Source: Clostridiaceae bacterium
GTDB taxonomy: Bacteria; Bacillota; Clostridia; Tissierellales; Sporanaerobacteraceae
DNA length: 64,000 nucleotides
Direction of reading: 5' to 3'
Assembly: GCA_019391515.1 (NCBI GenBank)
Contig: JAHXQP010000017.1
Coordinates: 62,001 to 126,000 of the forward strand
Positions within the stretch are counted from its first letter, which is position 1; the number at the start of each line of letters is the position of its first letter. The translations under genes were made by a program, and so were the position numbers. Positions 31,106-64,000 of the stretch are shown here, piece after piece. The notes under the pieces are model-generated. The model was not told where the DNA came from and ran no database searches. It saw only the letters and a list, made by a program, of their open reading frames with translations.

Positions 31106-32228
31106 AAGCAAAAAAGGGGATATAATAGCTATGGATAACAATGAACTTACTCTATATATTAACAAAGCAATTGGTAATATCGTTTCGGATGTTTTTGTCA
31201 ACACTTTAAATAATCCAAAAGAAAGTACATTCCTTATAAAATATGGGAAACAGAGCAAGGAATCCATGAAAAGAAGGGTTAAATACGAGGAAAAAGGGCA
31301 GCATATTCCTGCGTTTTTAATTTCCAGCATCACTAATTCTTGCAATTTATTCTGTAAGGGATGTTATGCAAGAAGCAATGGTATCTGTAATGAAAAAAAT
31401 CAAAAACAAATGCTTACCGATAAGCAATGGGAAGATATTTTTAGACAGGCTTCTGAATTGGGGATAGGATTCAATTTGCTTGCAGGTGGAGAACCCCTTA
31501 TTCGGAAAGATGTAATACAAAAAGCAGCAGCTTTCCAAGATATAGTTTTCCCCATATTTACAAATGGCACTCTAATAGATGATGAATATTGTGAGCTCTT
31601 TGATAAAAATCGAAATCTTGTTCCAGTATTGAGTATAGAAGGATTGCAGGAAACCACAGATTCTCGAAGAGGAGAAGGAATATATCTTCAATTATTAGAT
31701 AAAATGAAAATGCTCCAACAGCATAAAATATTATTTGGTGTTTCTATCACAGTAACGAGGGATAACATCCTTGAGGTAAGCAATATTAACTTTATGAGAC
31801 AATTGGAATCTTTGGGATGTCGATTGGTATTTTTTATTGAATATGTCCCAATAGATAAGTCTACGATGAGCTTGGCATTTTCTGATATAGAACGACATAA
31901 TTTGGAGAACCGTCAGCAGATATTAAGAGCCGAAATTCCATCTATACTATTTCTATCGTTTCCTGGGGATGAAAAAAGTATGGGAGGCTGTTTAGCCGCT
32001 GGCAGAGGATTTTTTCACATTAATCCATATGGAGAAGCGGAGGCTTGCCCATTTTCACCATACTCTGATCGAAATCTCCAGACTTCTACGCTATTAGAAG
32101 TTTTACAATCTCCTTTTTTTAAAAAACTTCAAAAAGACCGTTTAGTTGGTGGAGAGCATATTGGAGGTTGTGCTCTATTTGAAAAGCAATCTACTGTAGA
32201 AAATATTTTGAAATTAGTAAAAGGATAG
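31095..32228 (+). CDS. Radical SAM protein with C-terminal Cys region
   Basis: A 377-residue radical SAM enzyme. The cluster motif CNLFCKGCYARSN (CxxxCxxC) is near residue 88. GGEPLIRKD is the SAM-binding GGE motif, and FPIFTNGTLID follows. C-terminal cysteines in GGCLAAGRGFFHINPYGEAE, EACPFSPY and GGCALFE suggest one auxiliary cluster of SPASM-like type. The N-terminal 75 residues precede the barrel and may recognise a partner. GAAGGA lies before ATG 31095. It is coupled to a HAD phosphatase. No precursor peptide was found next to it. Confidence 0.88.
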   Translation: MKNKSKKGDIIAMDNNELTLYINKAIGNIVSDVFVNTLNNPKESTFLIKYGKQSKESMKRRVKYEEKGQHIPAFLISSITNSCNLFCKGCYARSNGICNEKNQKQMLTDKQWEDIFRQASELGIGFNLLAGGEPLIRKDVIQKAAAFQDIVFPIFTNGTLIDDEYCELFDKNRNLVPVLSIEGLQETTDSRRGEGIYLQLLDKMKMLQQHKILFGVSITVTRDNILEVSNINFMRQLESLGCRLVFFIEYVPIDKSTMSLAFSDIERHNLENRQQILRAEIPSILFLSFPGDEKSMGGCLAAGRGFFHINPYGEAEACPFSPYSDRNLQTSTLLEVLQSPFFKKLQKDRLVGGEHIGGCALFEKQSTVENILKLVKG

Positions 32229-55604: not shown

Positions 55605-56429
55605 TTACTTTATAACTAAGAAATATAATAAAATAAGTACACCTAGAATAATTCTGTACCAACCAAAAACTTTAAAATCATTATTTCTAATATATCGCAT
55701 TAAAAACTTAATCGCTATTATGGAAACCACGAAAGCAACTACCATTCCTGTTAATAATATAGTTATTTCCATTCCTGTAAAAGCAAATCCAAATTTCATT
55801 AGTTTTAATGCGCTGGCACCAAACATAATTGGAATAGACATAAAGAACGAATATTCAGCGGCGATATGGCGAGAGGTTCCCAATAATATCCCTCCAAGAA
55901 TAGTTGATCCTGAACGGGAGGTTCCTGGTATTAAGCTCAATACTTGAAACATACCTATTCCAAATGCAGTCCCATATGACAACTCTGAAAAATCTCTAGC
56001 CTTTGGTTTTTTATTTTTATTTCTATTTTCAATAAGAATAAAAAGTATTCCATATACAATCAAAGTTATTGAAACCGTAATATAATTATAGAAATGTTCA
56101 TCTAACCAATCATCAAACATTACACCCAATACTCCTGCAGGGATTATACCAATTAATACCTTGATCCAAATAGATATAGTATCTTTCTTTTCTTTTATAG
56201 ATTTTTTAGATGAAAATGGATTTAGCTTGTTAAAATATAATAGAACTACAGCCATAATAGCTCCCAGCTGAATTACTACCAAAAACATTTCCTTGAAAGC
56301 GGCAGTCATATTTAGCTTTATAAATTCATCTGCTAAAATCATATGTCCTGTACTACTTATAGGTAACCACTCTGTAATACCTTCTATAATTCCTAAAATA
56401 ATTGCCTTAATAATCTCAATATACTCCAT
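55605..56429 (-). CDS. uppP: Undecaprenyl-diphosphatase UppP (BacA)
   Basis: A 274-residue membrane enzyme that recycles the lipid carrier of cell-wall synthesis. The family signatures are present: [17 protein letters not shown] at the N-terminus and [19 protein letters not shown] (catalytic His/Glu/Arg/Ser set), with about eight helices. High levels give bacitracin resistance, in line with the neighbouring defence genes and the lost Bce module at 43 kb. Good start at 56429 with AAGGAG upstream. Confidence 0.95.
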
Positions 56430-58290: not shown

Positions 58291-59976
58291 TTATCTATAT
58301 GACAACTCCCTAACACATAGTTTTTCTTTTAGTATGCGATTATTCTCTATCTTAAGTTTATAATTGCAGTAGTCTAATACCTTATCCCTATGTGATACAA
58401 ATATCACAGTACTTTCATTAAACTTTCGAAAGATATTTTGTAATATAATTTCCTCTGATTTTGTATCTAAAGCTGATGTTGGTTCATCTAAGATTATTAT
58501 TGGTATATCCTTTCTTAAAAATAATCTTGCTAAAGATATCTTTTGACACTGACCTGCTGATAACTTAACTCCATAATTACCTACAATTGTATTTATACCA
58601 TCAGCCATCTGTTCAATATCCTTATCTAAATTTGCAAAAGTTATAGCTTTCATGATACTTGCATTGTCAATATTCTTATTATTTATAACTATATTTTCTA
58701 TAATAGTTCCATTAAATATAAACGGTACCTGTCCAATATATAATACATTATTAAAAAATGAATCAGAATCAAAAGAATTTATATCAACATCATCTATTGT
58801 AATATGACCATTATAAAATGGTTCTAATCTAGTCAATATATTTAATAAAGTAGATTTTCCAGTTCCATTGTCTCCAACCAATACAACTTTTTCTCCCTCA
58901 TTTATTTTTAAATCAATATTCTTTAATAAATGCCTTTCATTATAGCTAAAATTTAAATCTTTTATAGTAATATCAAAATTATTAAGAGAATTAAAATTAT
59001 AATTGCCACTTTTCAATTCATAGTTACTTGTTTCTAATATCTCAAGAACCCTTTCAATTGATGCTTCAGTTTTCTTCATTTCAATATAATTATTTATACA
59101 TGAAACGATTGGCGTAAATAACTTCTGTACATATAATGACAATGTAAATAAAGAACCAATTGTTAATTCATTTTTCAGAACCATAATTCCGCCTATAAAA
59201 AGAACAAGTATTAGATTTATTGCTTCAAAAAAGCCATCTATAACAAATAAATACTCTCTATATCCAACACCCTTTTTTTCTATCATACTTAAATCTTTAA
59301 AATTATCTTGGTATTTTTCAATAAAATAACTCTTTTTGTTCAATAAATTAATAGGCACTATTTTCTCTAATATTCTCTGAGTTAAATCTAAAAAAGATCC
59401 TCTTTCTCTATTATAAATATAAGCCATTTGTTTAATAAAAGAGGAATATTTTTTCTGTATTAAGAGATAAATAGTAGATACAAATAATGATATCAAGGCA
59501 ATTTTCCAATTTAACAAAACAACAATCACACATAATCCTATAAATGTTAAAATATTGGCAATAAAATCATTAATAATATTAACAAATAATCTTTGTATAG
59601 AAGCAACATCTTGATCTAATATTGATACTATGTCTCCTATTTTGATATTCTTAAAAAATTGAAGATTATTATTAAATACTTTATTTAAAATATGTTTTTT
59701 TAAATCTAAGCCTATCTTTTGACCTAATGTTAAATAGTATAATGATTTCATATATCTTGTAAATATCATTACACATAAAACGATAGTCATAAGTAATGTG
59801 TTCTGTAACAAACTCTTGTAATCATTATTGATAATTGAGTTATCAATAATGATCTTAAGAAAGTATGGATAAATAATACTACTTATTAAATATATGGACA
59901 ACAATAAGAAACCTTTTATTTGACTTCTTCTATATTTGTAGAAATAATTCTCATATAACAACCTATATTTAGCCAC
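58291..59976 (-). CDS. ABC exporter (fused permease-ATPase)
   Basis: A 561-residue half-transporter. Residues 1-310 form a type I exporter membrane domain with six helices. The ATPase has Walker A VGDNGTGKSTLLN, the signature KLSAGQCQKISLARLFLR and Walker B IIILDEPTSALD. There is no N-terminal C39 peptidase. It lies 79 bases after the BceAB-like permease gene in the same direction, downstream of a radical-SAM peptide locus. It could export the matured peptide, or protect against it. That link is by position only. Confidence 0.9.
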   Translation of the reverse strand: MAKYRLLYENYFYKYRRSQIKGFLLLSIYLISSIIYPYFLKIIIDNSIINNDYKSLLQNTLLMTIVLCVMIFTRYMKSLYYLTLGQKIGLDLKKHILNKVFNNNLQFFKNIKIGDIVSILDQDVASIQRLFVNIINDFIANILTFIGLCVIVVLLNWKIALISLFVSTIYLLIQKKYSSFIKQMAYIYNRERGSFLDLTQRILEKIVPINLLNKKSYFIEKYQDNFKDLSMIEKKGVGYREYLFVIDGFFEAINLILVLFIGGIMVLKNELTIGSLFTLSLYVQKLFTPIVSCINNYIEMKKTEASIERVLEILETSNYELKSGNYNFNSLNNFDITIKDLNFSYNERHLLKNIDLKINEGEKVVLVGDNGTGKSTLLNILTRLEPFYNGHITIDDVDINSFDSDSFFNNVLYIGQVPFIFNGTIIENIVINNKNIDNASIMKAITFANLDKDIEQMADGINTIVGNYGVKLSAGQCQKISLARLFLRKDIPIIILDEPTSALDTKSEEIILQNIFRKFNESTVIFVSHRDKVLDYCNYKLKIENNRILKEKLCVRELSYR

Positions 59977-60055: not shown

Positions 60056-62143
60056 CTATTCACTTATTTTATAATCTATAATGTCCTGGCTATATAATTT
60101 CATTGTTATAAAAAGATAAATAATATATATACATATAGAAATTATCCCTACTCCTTTTATAGTATACCAATAATTATCCCATCCAACATATGCATTTATC
60201 TCATTATTAAACGCCATAATCATTATCTTTATCGTAAGTAGCCAACCAAATATTGAAATAATACTTGGTATCAAAAAAAATGTTAAAACTTGATAATTCA
60301 CAGTCTTTTTTATTAAATCTATATCGGTTCCAATTTTATATAGTATCTTGCATCTCAATTTATTTTCTTCAAAATCTGTTAGTTGTTGCAAAGATATTAT
60401 AGTTAAAGCTATAATCAATAAGATGACACCTAAATATAAGAATATCATTCTTAACAGCAATGAAAAAATCATAGCTACATTATCTTGCTTAGTTTTCATA
60501 CGTATTGAAATTACATCTGTAACTTCTTCATTCTCACCTACAACGTTACAATGGTATTTATCATAAATTAAAGCAAATTCTCTTTTATTGAATTTAGCAA
60601 TATAATCTTCTATTTCTTCAGCCATCTTATAGCTCAATGAACTATAAGTATCTATGTAAAAACCAACTTTTCCAATATCTAATTCTTCACAAGCAGAATC
60701 AGGTAAAATAATTAATACATCAGTATACTTATTGTAAATAGATTCGCCTAATTCCTTTTTATAATATTTATTTGAATGAGGATATTTCTTTCCAGAAACA
60801 TTAATATTTGCTTTATCTTTAATCTCCGCTTCTATCTCTGCATCTTTACATGTTAAATTCCATTGAGTAGTATATTCATTATCATTAATTCTAATAGGAC
60901 TTTCTCTAATTAAACTAAGGAGCTTGTTATAATCACTTAGTTTTATTGCCAAAGCAGGAAAGTCGTCCACCTTTCTTTTAAAAAAATCATTAGAATTTAT
61001 AAAATAATATTCTATTCTGCAACTATCTTTTATTCTAATTTTATTTTTCTCAAGGTAGTTAGTTACTTTATCAAAATCTACAGTAACTAACTTATTCATA
61101 TCTTTTTTCTCATTGATTAATGAATATATAGTATTAAGTTGGATATCAAATACAGCTTTATGATCATTAAATCCATCTATCCAATCTGATAATATAGGTC
61201 CAAGACTAAAACTCATCATAGATGCCATTAAAGTCAGTGTAATAGTTGCCATTAACTTACTATTCGTGTTTATTTTAGAAAAAACATTACCTAATATAAG
61301 CACTCTTAAGTTTTTATATTTAAAATAGTCAAACTTTTGCCTTAACTTAGACAAAAAAAATCCAAATGAATAAAAAAATAAATATGTTCCAGCTATTACA
61401 GAAAATATTGATGTTAATATATACCTGTTTTTCACAGATATATCAATATAAACGAGATCCTCGATTTTCCTATATTTTATTATCATTATATAAGCACAAA
61501 TATAACACGATATCCCCACTATTAATGTTAATATATACACATAATCCTTTTTGTGTTTTCTATCTTCAGATTCATTCTTTAGACTCATTAATTCTCTTAT
61601 GCTTTTTTTGGATATAATTTGTACATTTCTAAATGCAATAAATATAAATATTAAAATATAAAATATTATTGTTCTAATAGCTGCTATCCACGAAATAGTT
61701 ATCATAGAAGAATGTTTTACATTTATACTATTCAATATAATATTTACCAGAAACGTAGAAAAGAAAATACCTATTATTATTCCCAATGCTACAGATACTA
61801 TACTTATTAATAAAAGTTGAATAGTAAACATTATAGCAATTTTCTTTGATTCAATTCCTAATAATGTATATATTGCAAGCTCGGAACTCCTAGTCTTTAT
61901 AATAAATCTATTTACATAAATAATTAGAATTACCAAAAAGAGTGAAATAATAACTGTTACATAATTCAGATAAGTATATAGATTAGAAAACTCAAACTTT
62001 TCAGGTGCCAAATTTGAAAGTTGAGTAGTTGATAAAGATGTAAATCCGTAAAACAACATAGCTCCGATAATTATTGTTACTATATATACTAAATATTTTC
62101 CGATATATTTTCTTGTATTTCTGGATATTAATTTACCATACAT
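60056..62143 (-). CDS. FtsX-like ABC permease, BceB type
   Basis: A 695-residue permease of the BceB/VraG kind. It has about ten helices, four to six before and the rest after a large extracellular domain (about residues 330-560). The N-terminus SRNTRKYIGKYLVYIVTIII and the FtsX helix ITLTLMASMMSFSLGPILS are typical. The start is taken as ATG 62143 after GGTGGTGA; GTG 62158 is another option. It overlaps the ATPase stop. Such transporters free lipid II-cycle intermediates from peptide antibiotics and act as sensors; no two-component system is present next to this one. Confidence 0.88.
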   Translation of the reverse strand: MYGKLISRNTRKYIGKYLVYIVTIIIGAMLFYGFTSLSTTQLSNLAPEKFEFSNLYTYLNYVTVIISLFLVILIIYVNRFIIKTRSSELAIYTLLGIESKKIAIMFTIQLLLISIVSVALGIIIGIFFSTFLVNIILNSINVKHSSMITISWIAAIRTIIFYILIFIFIAFRNVQIISKKSIRELMSLKNESEDRKHKKDYVYILTLIVGISCYICAYIMIIKYRKIEDLVYIDISVKNRYILTSIFSVIAGTYLFFYSFGFFLSKLRQKFDYFKYKNLRVLILGNVFSKINTNSKLMATITLTLMASMMSFSLGPILSDWIDGFNDHKAVFDIQLNTIYSLINEKKDMNKLVTVDFDKVTNYLEKNKIRIKDSCRIEYYFINSNDFFKRKVDDFPALAIKLSDYNKLLSLIRESPIRINDNEYTTQWNLTCKDAEIEAEIKDKANINVSGKKYPHSNKYYKKELGESIYNKYTDVLIILPDSACEELDIGKVGFYIDTYSSLSYKMAEEIEDYIAKFNKREFALIYDKYHCNVVGENEEVTDVISIRMKTKQDNVAMIFSLLLRMIFLYLGVILLIIALTIISLQQLTDFEENKLRCKILYKIGTDIDLIKKTVNYQVLTFFLIPSIISIFGWLLTIKIMIMAFNNEINAYVGWDNYWYTIKGVGIISICIYIIYLFITMKLYSQDIIDYKISE

Positions 62144-62144
62144 A

Positions 62145-62891
62145 TCAACATTCACCACCTAAAAACTTCATTGTTTTCATAATATTATTAAGAAACTTAG
62201 AACTATTGGTATTATTGATAATTTCATCAAAAAGTTTTCCATCTTTCAAAAACATAACACGTTTTGCATAACTAGCGCAAAATGGATCATGTGTTACCAT
62301 TAAAATGGTTGTATTATCTTCATTGTTTATCTTTTGTAAGGTATCCATAAAAACACTTGCCATATTTGAATCTAAAGAACCCGTTGGTTCATCAGCCAAT
62401 ATGATACTAGGAAGAGTTATCATTGCTCTTGCACATGCAACCCTTTGACGCTGTCCACCACTGATTTCTGTTGGATACTTGTCTAGTATGTCAAGTATGT
62501 CAAGTTTTTGGCATAGTTTATTTATTCTTTCGTTAATTATTAATGGATTCTCCCTATTGATAGTTAATGCAACGGCAATATTTTCTCTCACTGTGAGTAT
62601 CTCCAAAAGGTTGAACTCCTGGAAGATAAATCCTAAGTTTTTTCGTCTAAATTCCGCAAGTTTTTTTTGAGACATTCCACAAATATTTGTTCTAGCTATT
62701 TTTATTATTCCCTCATCAATTCTATCAATTGTTGCAATCACATTTAATAATGTCGTTTTCCCAGAACCAGATGGCCCCATTATAGCTACAAACTCTCCTT
62801 CTTTAACAGTAAACGATATATTATTCAGTGCCCGAGTTTTTACTTTCCCGCTATTATATATTTTAGTGACACCTTCAACAGATAAAACCAT
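62145..62891 (-). CDS. ABC ATPase, BceA/MacB type
   Basis: A 248-residue ATPase. Walker A is GPSGSGKTTLLN, the Q-loop is FIFQEFNLLEILTV, the signature is ISGGQRQRVACARA and Walker B is IILADEPTGSLD. The start is ATG 62891, because GGGAGGTGA sits just before it; the open frame extends to 62927 without support. It powers the BceB-type permease. A strong hairpin (62922-62964) separates it from the radical SAM remnant upstream. Confidence 0.92.
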   Translation of the reverse strand: MVLSVEGVTKIYNSGKVKTRALNNISFTVKEGEFVAIMGPSGSGKTTLLNVIATIDRIDEGIIKIARTNICGMSQKKLAEFRRKNLGFIFQEFNLLEILTVRENIAVALTINRENPLIINERINKLCQKLDILDILDKYPTEISGGQRQRVACARAMITLPSIILADEPTGSLDSNMASVFMDTLQKINNEDNTTILMVTHDPFCASYAKRVMFLKDGKLFDEIINNTNSSKFLNNIMKTMKFLGGEC

Positions 62892-62921
62892 ATTATCACC
62901 TCCCATATTTAACAATTTGAT

Positions 62922-62964
62922 AAACAACTAAGGAGCATAAGTTGTTTATGCCCCTTAGTTGTTT
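62922..62964 (-). promoter_or_regulatory. Long hairpin between the radical SAM remnant and the BceAB-like genes
   Basis: AAACAACTAAGGAGCATAA (62922-62940) pairs with the inverse sequence 62946-62964, with one mismatch, loop of 5 bases. No T tract follows on the minus strand, so it may be a processing or attenuation stem rather than a simple terminator. It overlaps the stop codon of the upstream Cys-rich frame. Confidence 0.6.
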
Positions 62965-63575
62965 AATATGCTACTACTTAGCCAGTCCATTGCTTGTCCA
63001 TTACACCGAAGGCAATTTTTAGTGTCTTTTTCATCACAGAAAACACACCATCCTTTGCTACACACTGGACCATTCAGCTTATTTATGAATTTAAATATGA
63101 TATGCACACATCCTCGTATAAAATATATTTAGGTTTTATGGATACTTATAAACATCGATACCAACTTTTAATATCTATAAAAATAGGTCAATATTCTTAT
63201 TAAATACTCTTTGAATCTCCTAATTCGTTCGAAAGAATAGAATCTCTGTATCTATGCCAATAGCTTAAACAATACTTTAGGTTTCTTATAAACATCATCC
63301 CCTTGATAAATCATTTTGGCCCTTATCATTAGTTTATTAGAGATAAGCTTCTGCAAACAACTTTAAAAGGTAAATATTTTTTAATTCCTATAACTATAAT
63401 GTAAGGGAAAACTTTTCTTCTATGGAATAATCTCTTCCTACTTTCATAATATTAAAGTCTAACAATGGTTCTCCACCGTAATAAGCAATACTAAAGATAT
63501 TGTCGTATTTATTTGAAATTAAAGTTTGTATTGTATTAATTAGCAACATGTCAAAAAACTTGTAGGACAGGCACT
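62955..63575 (-). pseudogene. Degenerate radical SAM/SPASM peptide maturase
   Basis: Pieces of one family follow each other on the minus strand. At 63411-63560 lies FFDMLLINTIQTLISNKYDN followed by IFSIAYYGGEPLLDFNIMK, the GGE region of radical SAM enzymes. Then stops and shifts follow, with GPK near the TIM-barrel. At 62955-63124 lies a Cys-rich tail: NGPVCSKGWCVFCDEK, then NCLRCNGQAMDW, like a SPASM end. The CxxxCxxC motif is missing. The 55-residue precursor-like ORF overlaps its 5' edge, so a deletion seems to have joined the two genes. Alternatively the Cys-rich tail is a separate small peptide. Confidence 0.68.
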
Positions 63576-63707
63576 TGATATCGATTTTATAAAATTATCC
63601 TCTTCAGAAATTAAATCGGAGATTTGTTGTTCCGTTATATCCATAGTTAAGTTTTTAGAAATCACTTCGTTTGCAGCTCTATCAATTCTTTTTAATGACA
63701 TTTTCAT
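63540..63707 (-). CDS. Candidate RiPP precursor peptide, 55 residues
   Basis: ATG 63707 follows a GGGGGAAGAG ribosome site. The frame encodes a charged leader MKMSLKRIDRAANEVISKNL, then TMDITEQQISDLISEEDNF, and ends IKSISSACPTSFLTCC before TAA. A polar leader plus a short Ser/Thr/Cys end is the form of ribosomal peptide antibiotics. A radical SAM maturase remnant follows directly, and transporters lie further down. One caution: the last residues lie in DNA that, one frame over, reads as maturase sequence. The true core may thus have been replaced through a deletion. The peptide family was not recognised. Confidence 0.55.
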   Translation of the reverse strand: MKMSLKRIDRAANEVISKNLTMDITEQQISDLISEEDNFIKSISSACPTSFLTCC

Positions 63708-63810
63708 ATTTTCTCTTCCCCCTTTTTTTGTATACTTAAACTATATTTTAAAATATATTTAATGTCAGCTAACTTTTGTACAAATTATCCAAATTGTTCA
63801 AAATATAAAA

Positions 63811-63838
63811 ACATGGAATTAAATAAGTAATTCCATGT
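63811..63838 (-). terminator. Terminator after the LuxR-type gene
   Basis: ACATGGAATTA (63811-63821) pairs perfectly with TAATTCCATGT (63828-63838). On the minus strand it is followed by TTTTTATATTTT. Confidence 0.8.
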
Positions 63839-63849
63839 CCCAAAATATA

Positions 63850-64000
63850 TTAAAAAAAACTTGGCTTTATATAACCTAACTCTAATGCTTTGTTTACCAT
63901 TTCTTGATAATTCCTCACATCTAATTTTTCATAAATTCGATTTAATGTTACAGCTAGTGAACTTACTGATATATGACATTCCTTAGCAACCTCTTTCCTT
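63850..64000 (-). CDS. LuxR-type HTH regulator (C-terminal part)
   Basis: The last 50 codons of a gene that enters from beyond the window. The visible end has a LuxR/FixJ helix-turn-helix: KEVAKECHISVSSLAVTLNR, then IYEKLDVRNYQEMVNKALEL and a short tail. It could be an orphan LuxR-type or NarL-type regulator; the N-terminal domain is not visible. It lies upstream of the peptide locus, in the same direction and separated by a terminator, and may regulate it. Confidence 0.8.
   Translation of the reverse strand, partial: RKEVAKECHISVSSLAVTLNRIYEKLDVRNYQEMVNKALELGYIKPSFF

What the first reader, a model, noticed from the sequence alone, without database searches (positions are those of the whole stretch)
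62955..63707. Decayed radical-SAM peptide (RiPP) locus with an unannotated precursor-like ORF
A 55-codon frame (63540-63707) with a good ribosome site encodes a charged leader and a Ser/Thr/Cys end (IKSISSACPTSFLTCC). It is followed by radical SAM/SPASM maturase fragments, a BceAB-like transporter and an ABC exporter, with a LuxR-type gene upstream. This is the layout of a peptide antibiotic or signalling locus. The precursor 3' end overlaps maturase-like sequence in another frame (KFFDMLL...), so a deletion probably fused the precursor to the maturase interior. The precursor family was not recognised, so intact relatives may define a new peptide class.
Basis: partly seen in the sequence, partly recalled or inferred. 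Interest (0 to 1): 0.72.

Follow-up and report, generated by a model that had tools for sequence, protein, structure and literature searches.

The report
Lanthipeptide precursor with its own switch
The small gene is an intact precursor of a probable thioether-ringed peptide (lanthipeptide), apparently switched on by a neighbouring sensor and regulator pair whose DNA site also lies before other modified-peptide genes in related anaerobes; the radical SAM debris beside it is probably the leftover of a different pathway.

Summary
The 55-codon ORF is real and intact. Seven other intact peptides share its C-terminal skeleton [ST]x[ST]xxC-x6-CC (8 of 8): four resemble it end to end, a Lachnospiraceae MAG shares CPTSFLTCC behind a diverged leader, two share only skeleton and position. 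The usual neighbours are not radical SAM genes but LanM, a histidine kinase and a LuxR-type regulator just beyond the window (6 of 8). Among 40 kinase loci the peptide is present at 5 of 5 with LanM directly upstream, 1 of 35 without. A box (ACAAAAGTTAGCTGA) with a -10 element at fixed spacing precedes 5 of 8 peptide genes; in this draft genome it occurs three times, all in this locus, and tracks the regulator's recognition helix (24 of 26 versus 0 of 12 loci, partly confounded by ancestry). On Anaerococcus prevotii plasmid pAPRE01 it precedes class III lanthipeptide and radical SAM peptide genes. The radical SAM remnant is real but short. Best reading: a class II lanthipeptide of lacticin-481-like skeleton, lacking the acidic residue of the lipid II motif, under autoregulatory control, perhaps itself the signal. 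Rings, export and sensing are untested.

The parts
63540..63707 (-). lanthipeptide-like precursor, 55 aa, C-terminus SISSAC-PTSFLT-CC
63763..63781 (-). operator box GTACAAAAGTTAGCTGACA (15-bp core at 63765-63779); its last six bases, CTGACA, serve as a -35-like element
63740..63745 (-). -10 element TATAGT, 17 nt after CTGACA, at the offset shared by the boxes
   Evidence: best promoter-like match of the stretch, 10 of 12; the number of such matches there, 4, is below the shuffles' 7.9
63808..63841 (-). terminator-like stem and T run after the regulator gene, separating it from the peptide's own promoter
   Evidence: (1 found, shuffles 0.4); similar repeat at the same place in L025, L026 and L028 read
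63850..64000 (-). C-terminal part of LuxR/NarL-type response regulator (continues beyond the window, L002 2351-2962)
63424..63531 (-). remnant of a radical SAM RiPP maturase interior (around YYGGEPLLDF), inside ORF 63394-63549; CcpM type inferred from position in relatives
   Evidence: not reported at E 1e-3
62958..63107 (-). 50-aa Cys-rich ORF of unknown origin; membership in this system not shown
62145..62927 (-). ABC ATPase, BceA-like by layout (better start probably ATG at 62891); possible immunity, not seen beside relatives and without a box of its own
60056..62158 (-). FtsX-like permease, 700 aa, BceB-like by layout
   Evidence: no NCBIfam match
58291..59976 (-). ABC exporter without a C39 peptidase domain; possible exporter of the peptide (inferred)

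Best explanation
The ORF encodes an intact class II lanthipeptide precursor. Inferred steps: the neighbouring LanM dehydrates the conserved Ser/Thr and closes thioether rings onto the three conserved Cys of [ST]x[ST]xxC-x6-CC, in the manner of lacticin 481; a transporter exports the peptide and a protease other than a LanT C39 domain removes the leader. Steps supported by comparison: the histidine kinase (eight hydrophobic segments) and LuxR-type regulator encoded between LanM and the peptide control the peptide gene, and the genes leading through LanM to the regulator itself, through the box ACAAAAGTTAGCTGA overlapping the -35 region. In this genome a third box precedes a second precursor-like ORF (MKDKKILDQ...CGQAQLHCITDC...). 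The simplest wiring is positive feedback in which the mature peptide is the kinase's signal (a lanthipeptide pheromone); a plain bacteriocin output is the main alternative for that last step. The radical SAM debris belongs to a separate, lost pathway, probably of CcpM type.
For: Skeleton in 8 of 8 intact peptides, including two (G173, G110) found only by position behind the regulator; of 6622 distinct ORF tails in the loci then held, 9 fit, 8 of them these peptides. LanM within 1.5 kb upstream: 5 of 40 kinase loci, all 5 with the peptide (four within the fetched locus; the fifth lies beyond L066 and was read in L030), against 1 of 35 without LanM. LanM (936 aa) scores 728 against TIGR03897 (cut-off 304), aligns to LicM2, and keeps the dehydratase and zinc-site motifs DxHxxN...DxE, WCHG and CHG (motifs recalled). 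Box: three sites in the draft genome at up to 3 mismatches in the 19-mer, all within 17.4 kb of this locus, before the peptide, before the amidase-to-regulator gene run and before a second precursor-like ORF; reversed control 0. Box within 200 nt upstream of 5 of 8 peptides. -10 match of 5/6 or better at one fixed offset in 18 of 24 boxes, at most 6 of 24 at any other offset listed, random 2.1%. Box in 25 of 40 kinase loci, reversed control 0 of 40. Regulators with helix SL[AT]VxLxRIY: box in 24 of 26 loci; other helices 0 of 12; helix not found in 2, one of them with a box. Purifying selection on the peptide and eight hydrophobic segments in the kinase.
Against: No mass spectrum, no expression data. 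The leader lacks a GG/GA site, and no C39 peptidase domain was found in 4 of 5 genomes, unlike typical LanM systems (recalled). The Thr before CC is replaced by Met, Val, Ala or Ile in 4 of 8 peptides, so a third ring as in lacticin 481 would need another residue. The box is not found before 3 of 8 peptides (G011, the Lachnospiraceae MAG, G110). LanM frames are interrupted in Tissierella sp. P1 and in the MAG; G011 and G110 have no LanM in the 19 and 16 kb read. Many box-bearing kinase loci have other, secreted-looking proteins instead of the peptide, so the signal need not be the peptide. Of the 12 regulators with other helices, 9 come from the Lachnospiraceae-centred search and 3 are near-identical, so the helix-box link is confounded by ancestry. 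One reversed-pattern match occurs in G241.
Confidence: 0.74

Rival explanations
1. The peptide is a radical SAM (CcpM-type) RiPP, and the adjacent LanM acts on something else.
For: CcpM-type genes follow the peptide in G241 copy 2 and Tissierella sp. P1 and a radical SAM remnant follows it here; weak leader similarity to the KGR RaS-RiPP family (E 0.011, 15.8 bits against cut-off 50).
Against: No CcpM match at E 1e-8 in L025, L030, L077 or L005, and only a 134-bit radical SAM match about 6 kb away in L076; the CcpM loci have their own Cys-rich peptides; the peptide persists here although the adjacent maturase is broken and no complete CcpM was found in the window, L002 or L006; LanM is the commoner partner.
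Confidence: 0.1
2. It is a LanM-made bacteriocin, not a signal; kinase and regulator sense envelope stress or another cue and switch on several RiPPs together. (Shares the first steps of the best explanation, so the odds overlap.)
For: Lacticin-481-like skeleton; BceAB-like and other ABC transporters and a BacA-family protein in the neighbourhood; boxes lie before diverse RiPP genes; box-bearing kinase loci without the peptide exist.
Against: The D/E of the lipid II motif TXS/TXD/EC (PMC4985645, passage) is missing in 8 of 8 peptides (A, P, V, G or I instead); no BceAB-like pair was seen directly behind the peptide in L025, L026 or L028, and the one here has no box.
Confidence: 0.36
3. An unmodified or differently cyclised (for example thiolactone) signalling peptide for the kinase.
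For: A short peptide beside a polytopic kinase and a response regulator recalls Agr and ComX loci (recalled).
Against: A LanM with its catalytic motifs adjoins in most loci; Ser/Thr positions are conserved. AgrB- or ComQ-type genes were not looked for by profile; none was noticed among the ORFs listed.
Confidence: 0.08
4. A decayed, non-functional remnant.
For: Adjacent radical SAM remnant; a stop-bearing copy exists in G241; transposase and intron genes surround the copy in G011 (named by eye).
Against: Full-length, dN/dS about 0.17, exact box and -10, LanM motifs retained.
Confidence: 0.06

Closest known systems
Lacticin 481 group (type A-II, class II lanthipeptides: lacticin 481, nukacin ISK-1, salivaricin B)
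   Same: LanM-type enzyme; C-terminal T-x-S-x-x-C ... C-C layout (lacticin 481 letters recalled; motif TXS/TXD/EC and unbridged N-terminal part from PMC4985645, passages)
   Different: Six instead of about ten residues before CC (recalled), no D/E before the first Cys, no GG/GA leader site, no LanT C39 domain found; no NCBIfam or Pfam model above its cut-off
LanM-like proteins linked to Agr quorum sensing in Clostridium (CA_C0082; PMC10301443, abstract and passages)
   Same: LanM-family gene in a signalling locus of a clostridium
   Different: Those LanM-like proteins lack catalytic residues and are not needed to make the signal; here the catalytic motifs are kept and a candidate substrate is encoded in the module
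CcpM Cys-rich peptide maturation systems (TIGR04068, TIGR04066)
   Same: Close neighbours in two relatives and perhaps the source of the remnant here
   Different: Own Cys-rich peptides; absent from most loci; no complete gene here
ComP/ComA-type and nisin-type autoinduction circuits (recalled)
   Same: Peptide, polytopic kinase and regulator, a probable regulator site before the peptide gene
   Different: Class II lanthipeptide; NarL/LuxR-type regulator; one operator shared by several RiPP classes

Membership tests
Class II lanthipeptide system | Bifunctional LanM with dehydratase and zinc-site motifs in the locus | tested here: met
   TIGR03897 728 bits against 304; DxHxxN..DxE, WCHG, CHG present in G000, L025, L026, L076
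Class II lanthipeptide system | Precursor with leader and Ser/Thr/Cys core linked to LanM | tested here: met
   5 of 5 LanM-bearing kinase loci have it, 1 of 35 others
Class II lanthipeptide system | Lanthionine rings in the product | not testable with these tools
   needs mass spectrometry
Class II lanthipeptide system | LanT with C39 peptidase and GG/GA leader site (common, not universal; recalled) | tested here: not met
   No PF03412 in G000, G241, G239, G173; one in G249 on another contig than the locus; no GG/GA before the core
Lacticin 481 group | Ring A motif TXS/TXD/EC | tested here: not met
   [ST]x[ST]xxC kept in 8 of 8, but D/E before Cys in 0 of 8 (motif from PMC4985645)
Lacticin 481 group | C-terminal CC pair | tested here: met
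   8 of 8, one with an extra Phe
CcpM radical SAM RiPP (TIGR04068) | Complete CcpM gene in the locus | tested here: not met
   Only the short remnant beside the peptide; best full-length matches in L002 are 112 and 108 bits at 25-29% identity, in the window 48 bits at 31329-31784; two upstream radical SAM proteins score 153.6 and 118.2 of 500, the third is not among the 25 rows shown
KGR RaS-RiPP (NF050045) | Score above curated cut-off | tested here: not met
   15.8 against 50 bits, leader only

The most novel reading that the evidence does not exclude
A class II lanthipeptide acts as a dedicated pheromone: it is sensed by its co-encoded eight-pass kinase, whose regulator, through one conserved operator, turns on its own operon and whole islands of unrelated RiPPs (class II and III lanthipeptides, ranthipeptide-like, CXXX and Cys-rich radical SAM peptides) across Tissierellales, including a conjugative plasmid.
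Probability: 0.33. Interest if true: 0.78.

Novelty: new variant of a known kind. Interest (0 to 1): 0.6.

Why it matters
It names a peptide family that no Pfam or NCBIfam model recognised here, ties it to a specific enzyme, and gives a testable operator by which RiPP genes in poorly studied anaerobes can be found and switched on. If the peptide proves to be the signal, it would be a lanthipeptide without the lipid II acidic residue used for communication, with one regulator governing several RiPP classes.

Tried and rejected
Radical SAM maturation of the peptide: set aside because CcpM is inconstant. Truncated or fused precursor: rejected, the core is identical to intact relatives and the maturase match starts after the stop. 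Relatives of the precursor in phage and plasmid records: none at E 0.01. Viral contig hit L035: a chance match in a phage contig, without the terminal CC. LanM in viral contigs: none. Weak precursor hits at E 0.0027-0.1 in 16 of the 20 matching genomes were dropped by score and by the mostly long open frames around them; their loci were not read. Evenly drawn samples of class (391 genomes) and phylum (398) gave only the own genome: the family is rare or too diverged for the 6-row profile. Box search in the Lachnospiraceae genome: 83 matches to the 15-mer at up to 3 mismatches, control 108. Promoter-like search on plasmids with a 42-nt query: listed hits at E 0.5-7, chance level. Exact box plus TANNNT in viral contigs: 6 stretches, taken as background, contexts not read. 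Identity of ORF 62958-63107: unresolved. Structure prediction was not run: kinase and LanM lie outside the window, and most of the wanted sequences are outside the tool's stated scope. A first recognition-helix script missed rows and was replaced. Rows left out of counts: the ninth, stop-bearing peptide copy in L027 (it also lacks the second S/T); five second kinase matches not returned as loci (one of them, G241 copy 2, was read as L026).

Full report
The window lies at G000:C28:62001-126000 of a 2.84-Mb draft genome in 32 contigs. The order is Tissierellales: genome G239, listed as same order, has a contig of the same length (144,606) and the same peptide position as Tissierella sp. P1 contig NZ_NPMN01000010.1. 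The species of the window is not identified.

The observation. ORF 63540-63707 (-) encodes MKMSLKRIDRAANEVISKNLTMDITEQQISDLISEEDNFIKSISSACPTSFLTCC. Protein searches found relatives in 2 of 60 near genomes, the own one included, and in 4 of 249 genomes of the order with E of about 5e-11 or better, the own one included; the other 16 of 20 listed genomes had weak matches (E 0.0027-0.1), dropped. Genome G241 holds three copies, one with an in-frame stop. A scan of the collection of 84,980 species genomes returned two loci: Tissierella sp. P1 and Lachnospiraceae bacterium UBA1683, a MAG from outside Tissierellales by its name. Samples of the class (391) and phylum (398) gave only the own genome. 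The family is rare.

The neighbourhood. Beyond the window's right edge, on the same strand and in reading order, lie a radical SAM gene (393 aa), an ABC exporter (571), a subtilisin-like protein (339), radical SAM genes of 383 and 414 aa, a C92-type amidase (219), a 351-aa protein, a LanM (936 aa, TIGR03897 728 bits against cut-off 304), a 550-aa histidine kinase and a 203-aa LuxR-type response regulator; then, after a terminator-like stem, the peptide. LanM-kinase-regulator-peptide recurs in G241 twice, in Tissierella sp. P1, in the Lachnospiraceae MAG and in G173. What follows the peptide varies: CcpM-type radical SAM genes in two loci (546.5 bits, above the 500 cut-off, in L026; 480, just below, in L028), an ABC exporter in G110, neither in L025. 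In the CcpM loci, separate Cys-rich peptides are encoded.

Kinase-based search. At E 1e-25 the kinase found 30 of 249 genomes in the order and, starting from the Lachnospiraceae homologue, 10 of 250 in that family, giving 40 loci with flanks of up to 1.5 kb, one per genome. LanM lies in the upstream flank in 5 of 40; all 5 have the peptide (four within the locus, the fifth in L030), and 1 of the 35 others has it (G110, a 71%-complete draft). The peptides of G173 and G110 share almost no leader similarity with P0001 (23% and 18%) but keep the skeleton [ST]x[ST]xxC-x6-CC, as do all 8 intact peptides. In 6622 distinct ORF tails from the loci then held the pattern fits 9: these 8 and one antisense frame of the window.

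What modifies it. The commonest adjacent enzyme is LanM, with dehydratase and zinc-site motifs (recalled) retained in G000, both G241 copies and G173 and similarity to LicM2 over residues 45-936. In Tissierella sp. P1 and the Lachnospiraceae MAG the LanM frame is interrupted; intact copies exist elsewhere. The skeleton resembles lacticin 481 (recalled), but the acidic residue of the lipid II motif TXS/TXD/EC (PMC4985645, passages; role of ring A in nukacin ISK-1, PMC6156582, passages) is absent in 8 of 8. No C39 peptidase domain was found in 4 of 5 genomes searched. No Pfam or NCBIfam model matches any of the 8 peptides above its cut-off. That the rings form is inferred.

What controls it. Five of 8 peptide genes have the box within 200 nt upstream: G000, both G241 copies and Tissierella sp. 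P1 exactly, G173 with one mismatch and a weaker -10 (4/6); G011, the MAG and G110 do not, although G110 has an exact box elsewhere in the 16 kb read and a one-mismatch box before the gene preceding its kinase. Searched over the own genome with up to 3 mismatches, GTACAAAAGTTAGCTGACA occurs three times and its reverse never: before the peptide; before the run amidase, 351-aa protein, LanM, kinase, regulator, whose gaps suggest one operon; and at C28:143114 before a second precursor-like ORF, MKDKKILDQELTEADKTELLEAEVNMYEKDCGQAQLHCITDCFPFGTAFINPNR, which matches no NCBIfam model at E 0.001. The first site helped define the pattern; the other two are independent. G241 has 10 hits, 8 of them within a 98-kb RiPP region, and 1 reversed-control hit; Tissierella sp. 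P1 has 8, five of them with at most two mismatches; G001, G002 and G004 have none, G003 and G011 one each at 3 mismatches, the latter not at its peptide. Of 24 boxes (15-mer, up to 2 mismatches) in 12 loci, 18 have a -10 match of at least 5/6 at one fixed offset, at most 6 at any other offset listed, against 2.1% at random. A plain sigma-70 scan ranks this promoter best in its stretch (10 of 12) but finds fewer promoter-like sites there than in shuffles. The box lies in 25 of 40 kinase loci, the reversed control in 0. It follows the regulator: SL[AT]VxLxRIY helices 24 of 26 with box, other helices 0 of 12, helix not found in 2, one with and one without a box. Nine of the 12 come from the Lachnospiraceae-centred search and three are near-identical, so ancestry confounds this; the Lachnospiraceae regulator beside the peptide has another helix and its locus no box.

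A named relative. On Anaerococcus prevotii plasmid pAPRE01 (115.6 kb, typed conjugative) a pair annotated 'membrane protein' and response regulator matches the kinase (31.7% over 40% of the query) and has the SLAVSLSRIY helix. Four boxes at up to 2 mismatches were found, both controls none: before the pair itself, before a hypothetical peptide and the radical SAM maturase of the CXXX-repeat family, before a LanKC class III lanthipeptide operon, and before hypothetical genes that lead to a radical SAM gene. The -10 of the second is poor (3/6). Earlier mining papers note a sactipeptide-like cluster on this plasmid (PMC3132745 and PMC4289311, passages); the passages seen do not mention this operator.

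The radical SAM debris. The stretch 63424-63531 resembles radical SAM maturase interiors, starts after the peptide's stop, and is too short to be reported against the whole window at E 1e-3. Its best profile is RumMC, then CcpM; CcpM type is inferred from the relatives. The peptide therefore outlived that gene. ORF 62958-63107 remains unexplained.

Interpretation. Shown by comparison: conservation, linkage to LanM, a shared operator, its association with the regulator type. Inferred: modification by LanM, binding of the regulator, export, sensing. The feedback layout suggests a pheromone, but box-bearing kinase loci without the peptide leave room for a bacteriocin output under another cue. Searches of the paper library for the core letters, for lanthipeptide signalling and for these taxa (listings only, top entries seen) and passages of PMC7268733 showed no description of the peptide or operator; subscription literature is not covered.

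Noticed in passing
L006 2665-2829 (-), G000:C28:142664-142828: Second precursor-like ORF behind box three, similar in layout to peptides beside PapB-like radical SAM genes in G241 (L027 15874-16250); possibly a ranthipeptide-type RiPP under the same regulator.
   Followed up: partly
L034 682-804 (G239:C61): A 40-aa ORF behind an exact box looks like a fusion of the CPTSF-type leader with the tail (DASYNRG) of a Cys-rich CcpM-locus peptide, as if by recombination.
   Followed up: no
window 62921-62965: Inverted repeat of 20-nt arms, 95% complementary, 5-nt loop, between ORF 62958-63107 and the BceA-like gene; attenuator or terminator role not tested (no T run scored).
   Followed up: partly
window 62958-63107: 50-aa Cys-rich ORF (CSKGWCVFCDEKDTKNCLRCNGQAMDW) without convincing relatives.
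   Followed up: partly
L044-L049 and similar loci: In many kinase-regulator loci of the order without LanM, a box also lies directly after the regulator, before genes for secreted-looking proteins of about 118-246 aa; their role is unknown.
   Followed up: partly
L028 1815-4608 and L030 4036-6643: LanM reading frames interrupted in Tissierella sp. P1 and in Lachnospiraceae bacterium UBA1683; sequencing error or decay not decided.
   Followed up: no
window 55605-56429: BacA (UppP) family protein (PF02673, 294.7 bits) a few kb from the BceAB-like transporter; possible contribution to peptide immunity.
   Followed up: partly
window 31329-31784: A weak radical SAM-like match to CcpM queries (E 4e-8, 27%), not examined.
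   Followed up: no
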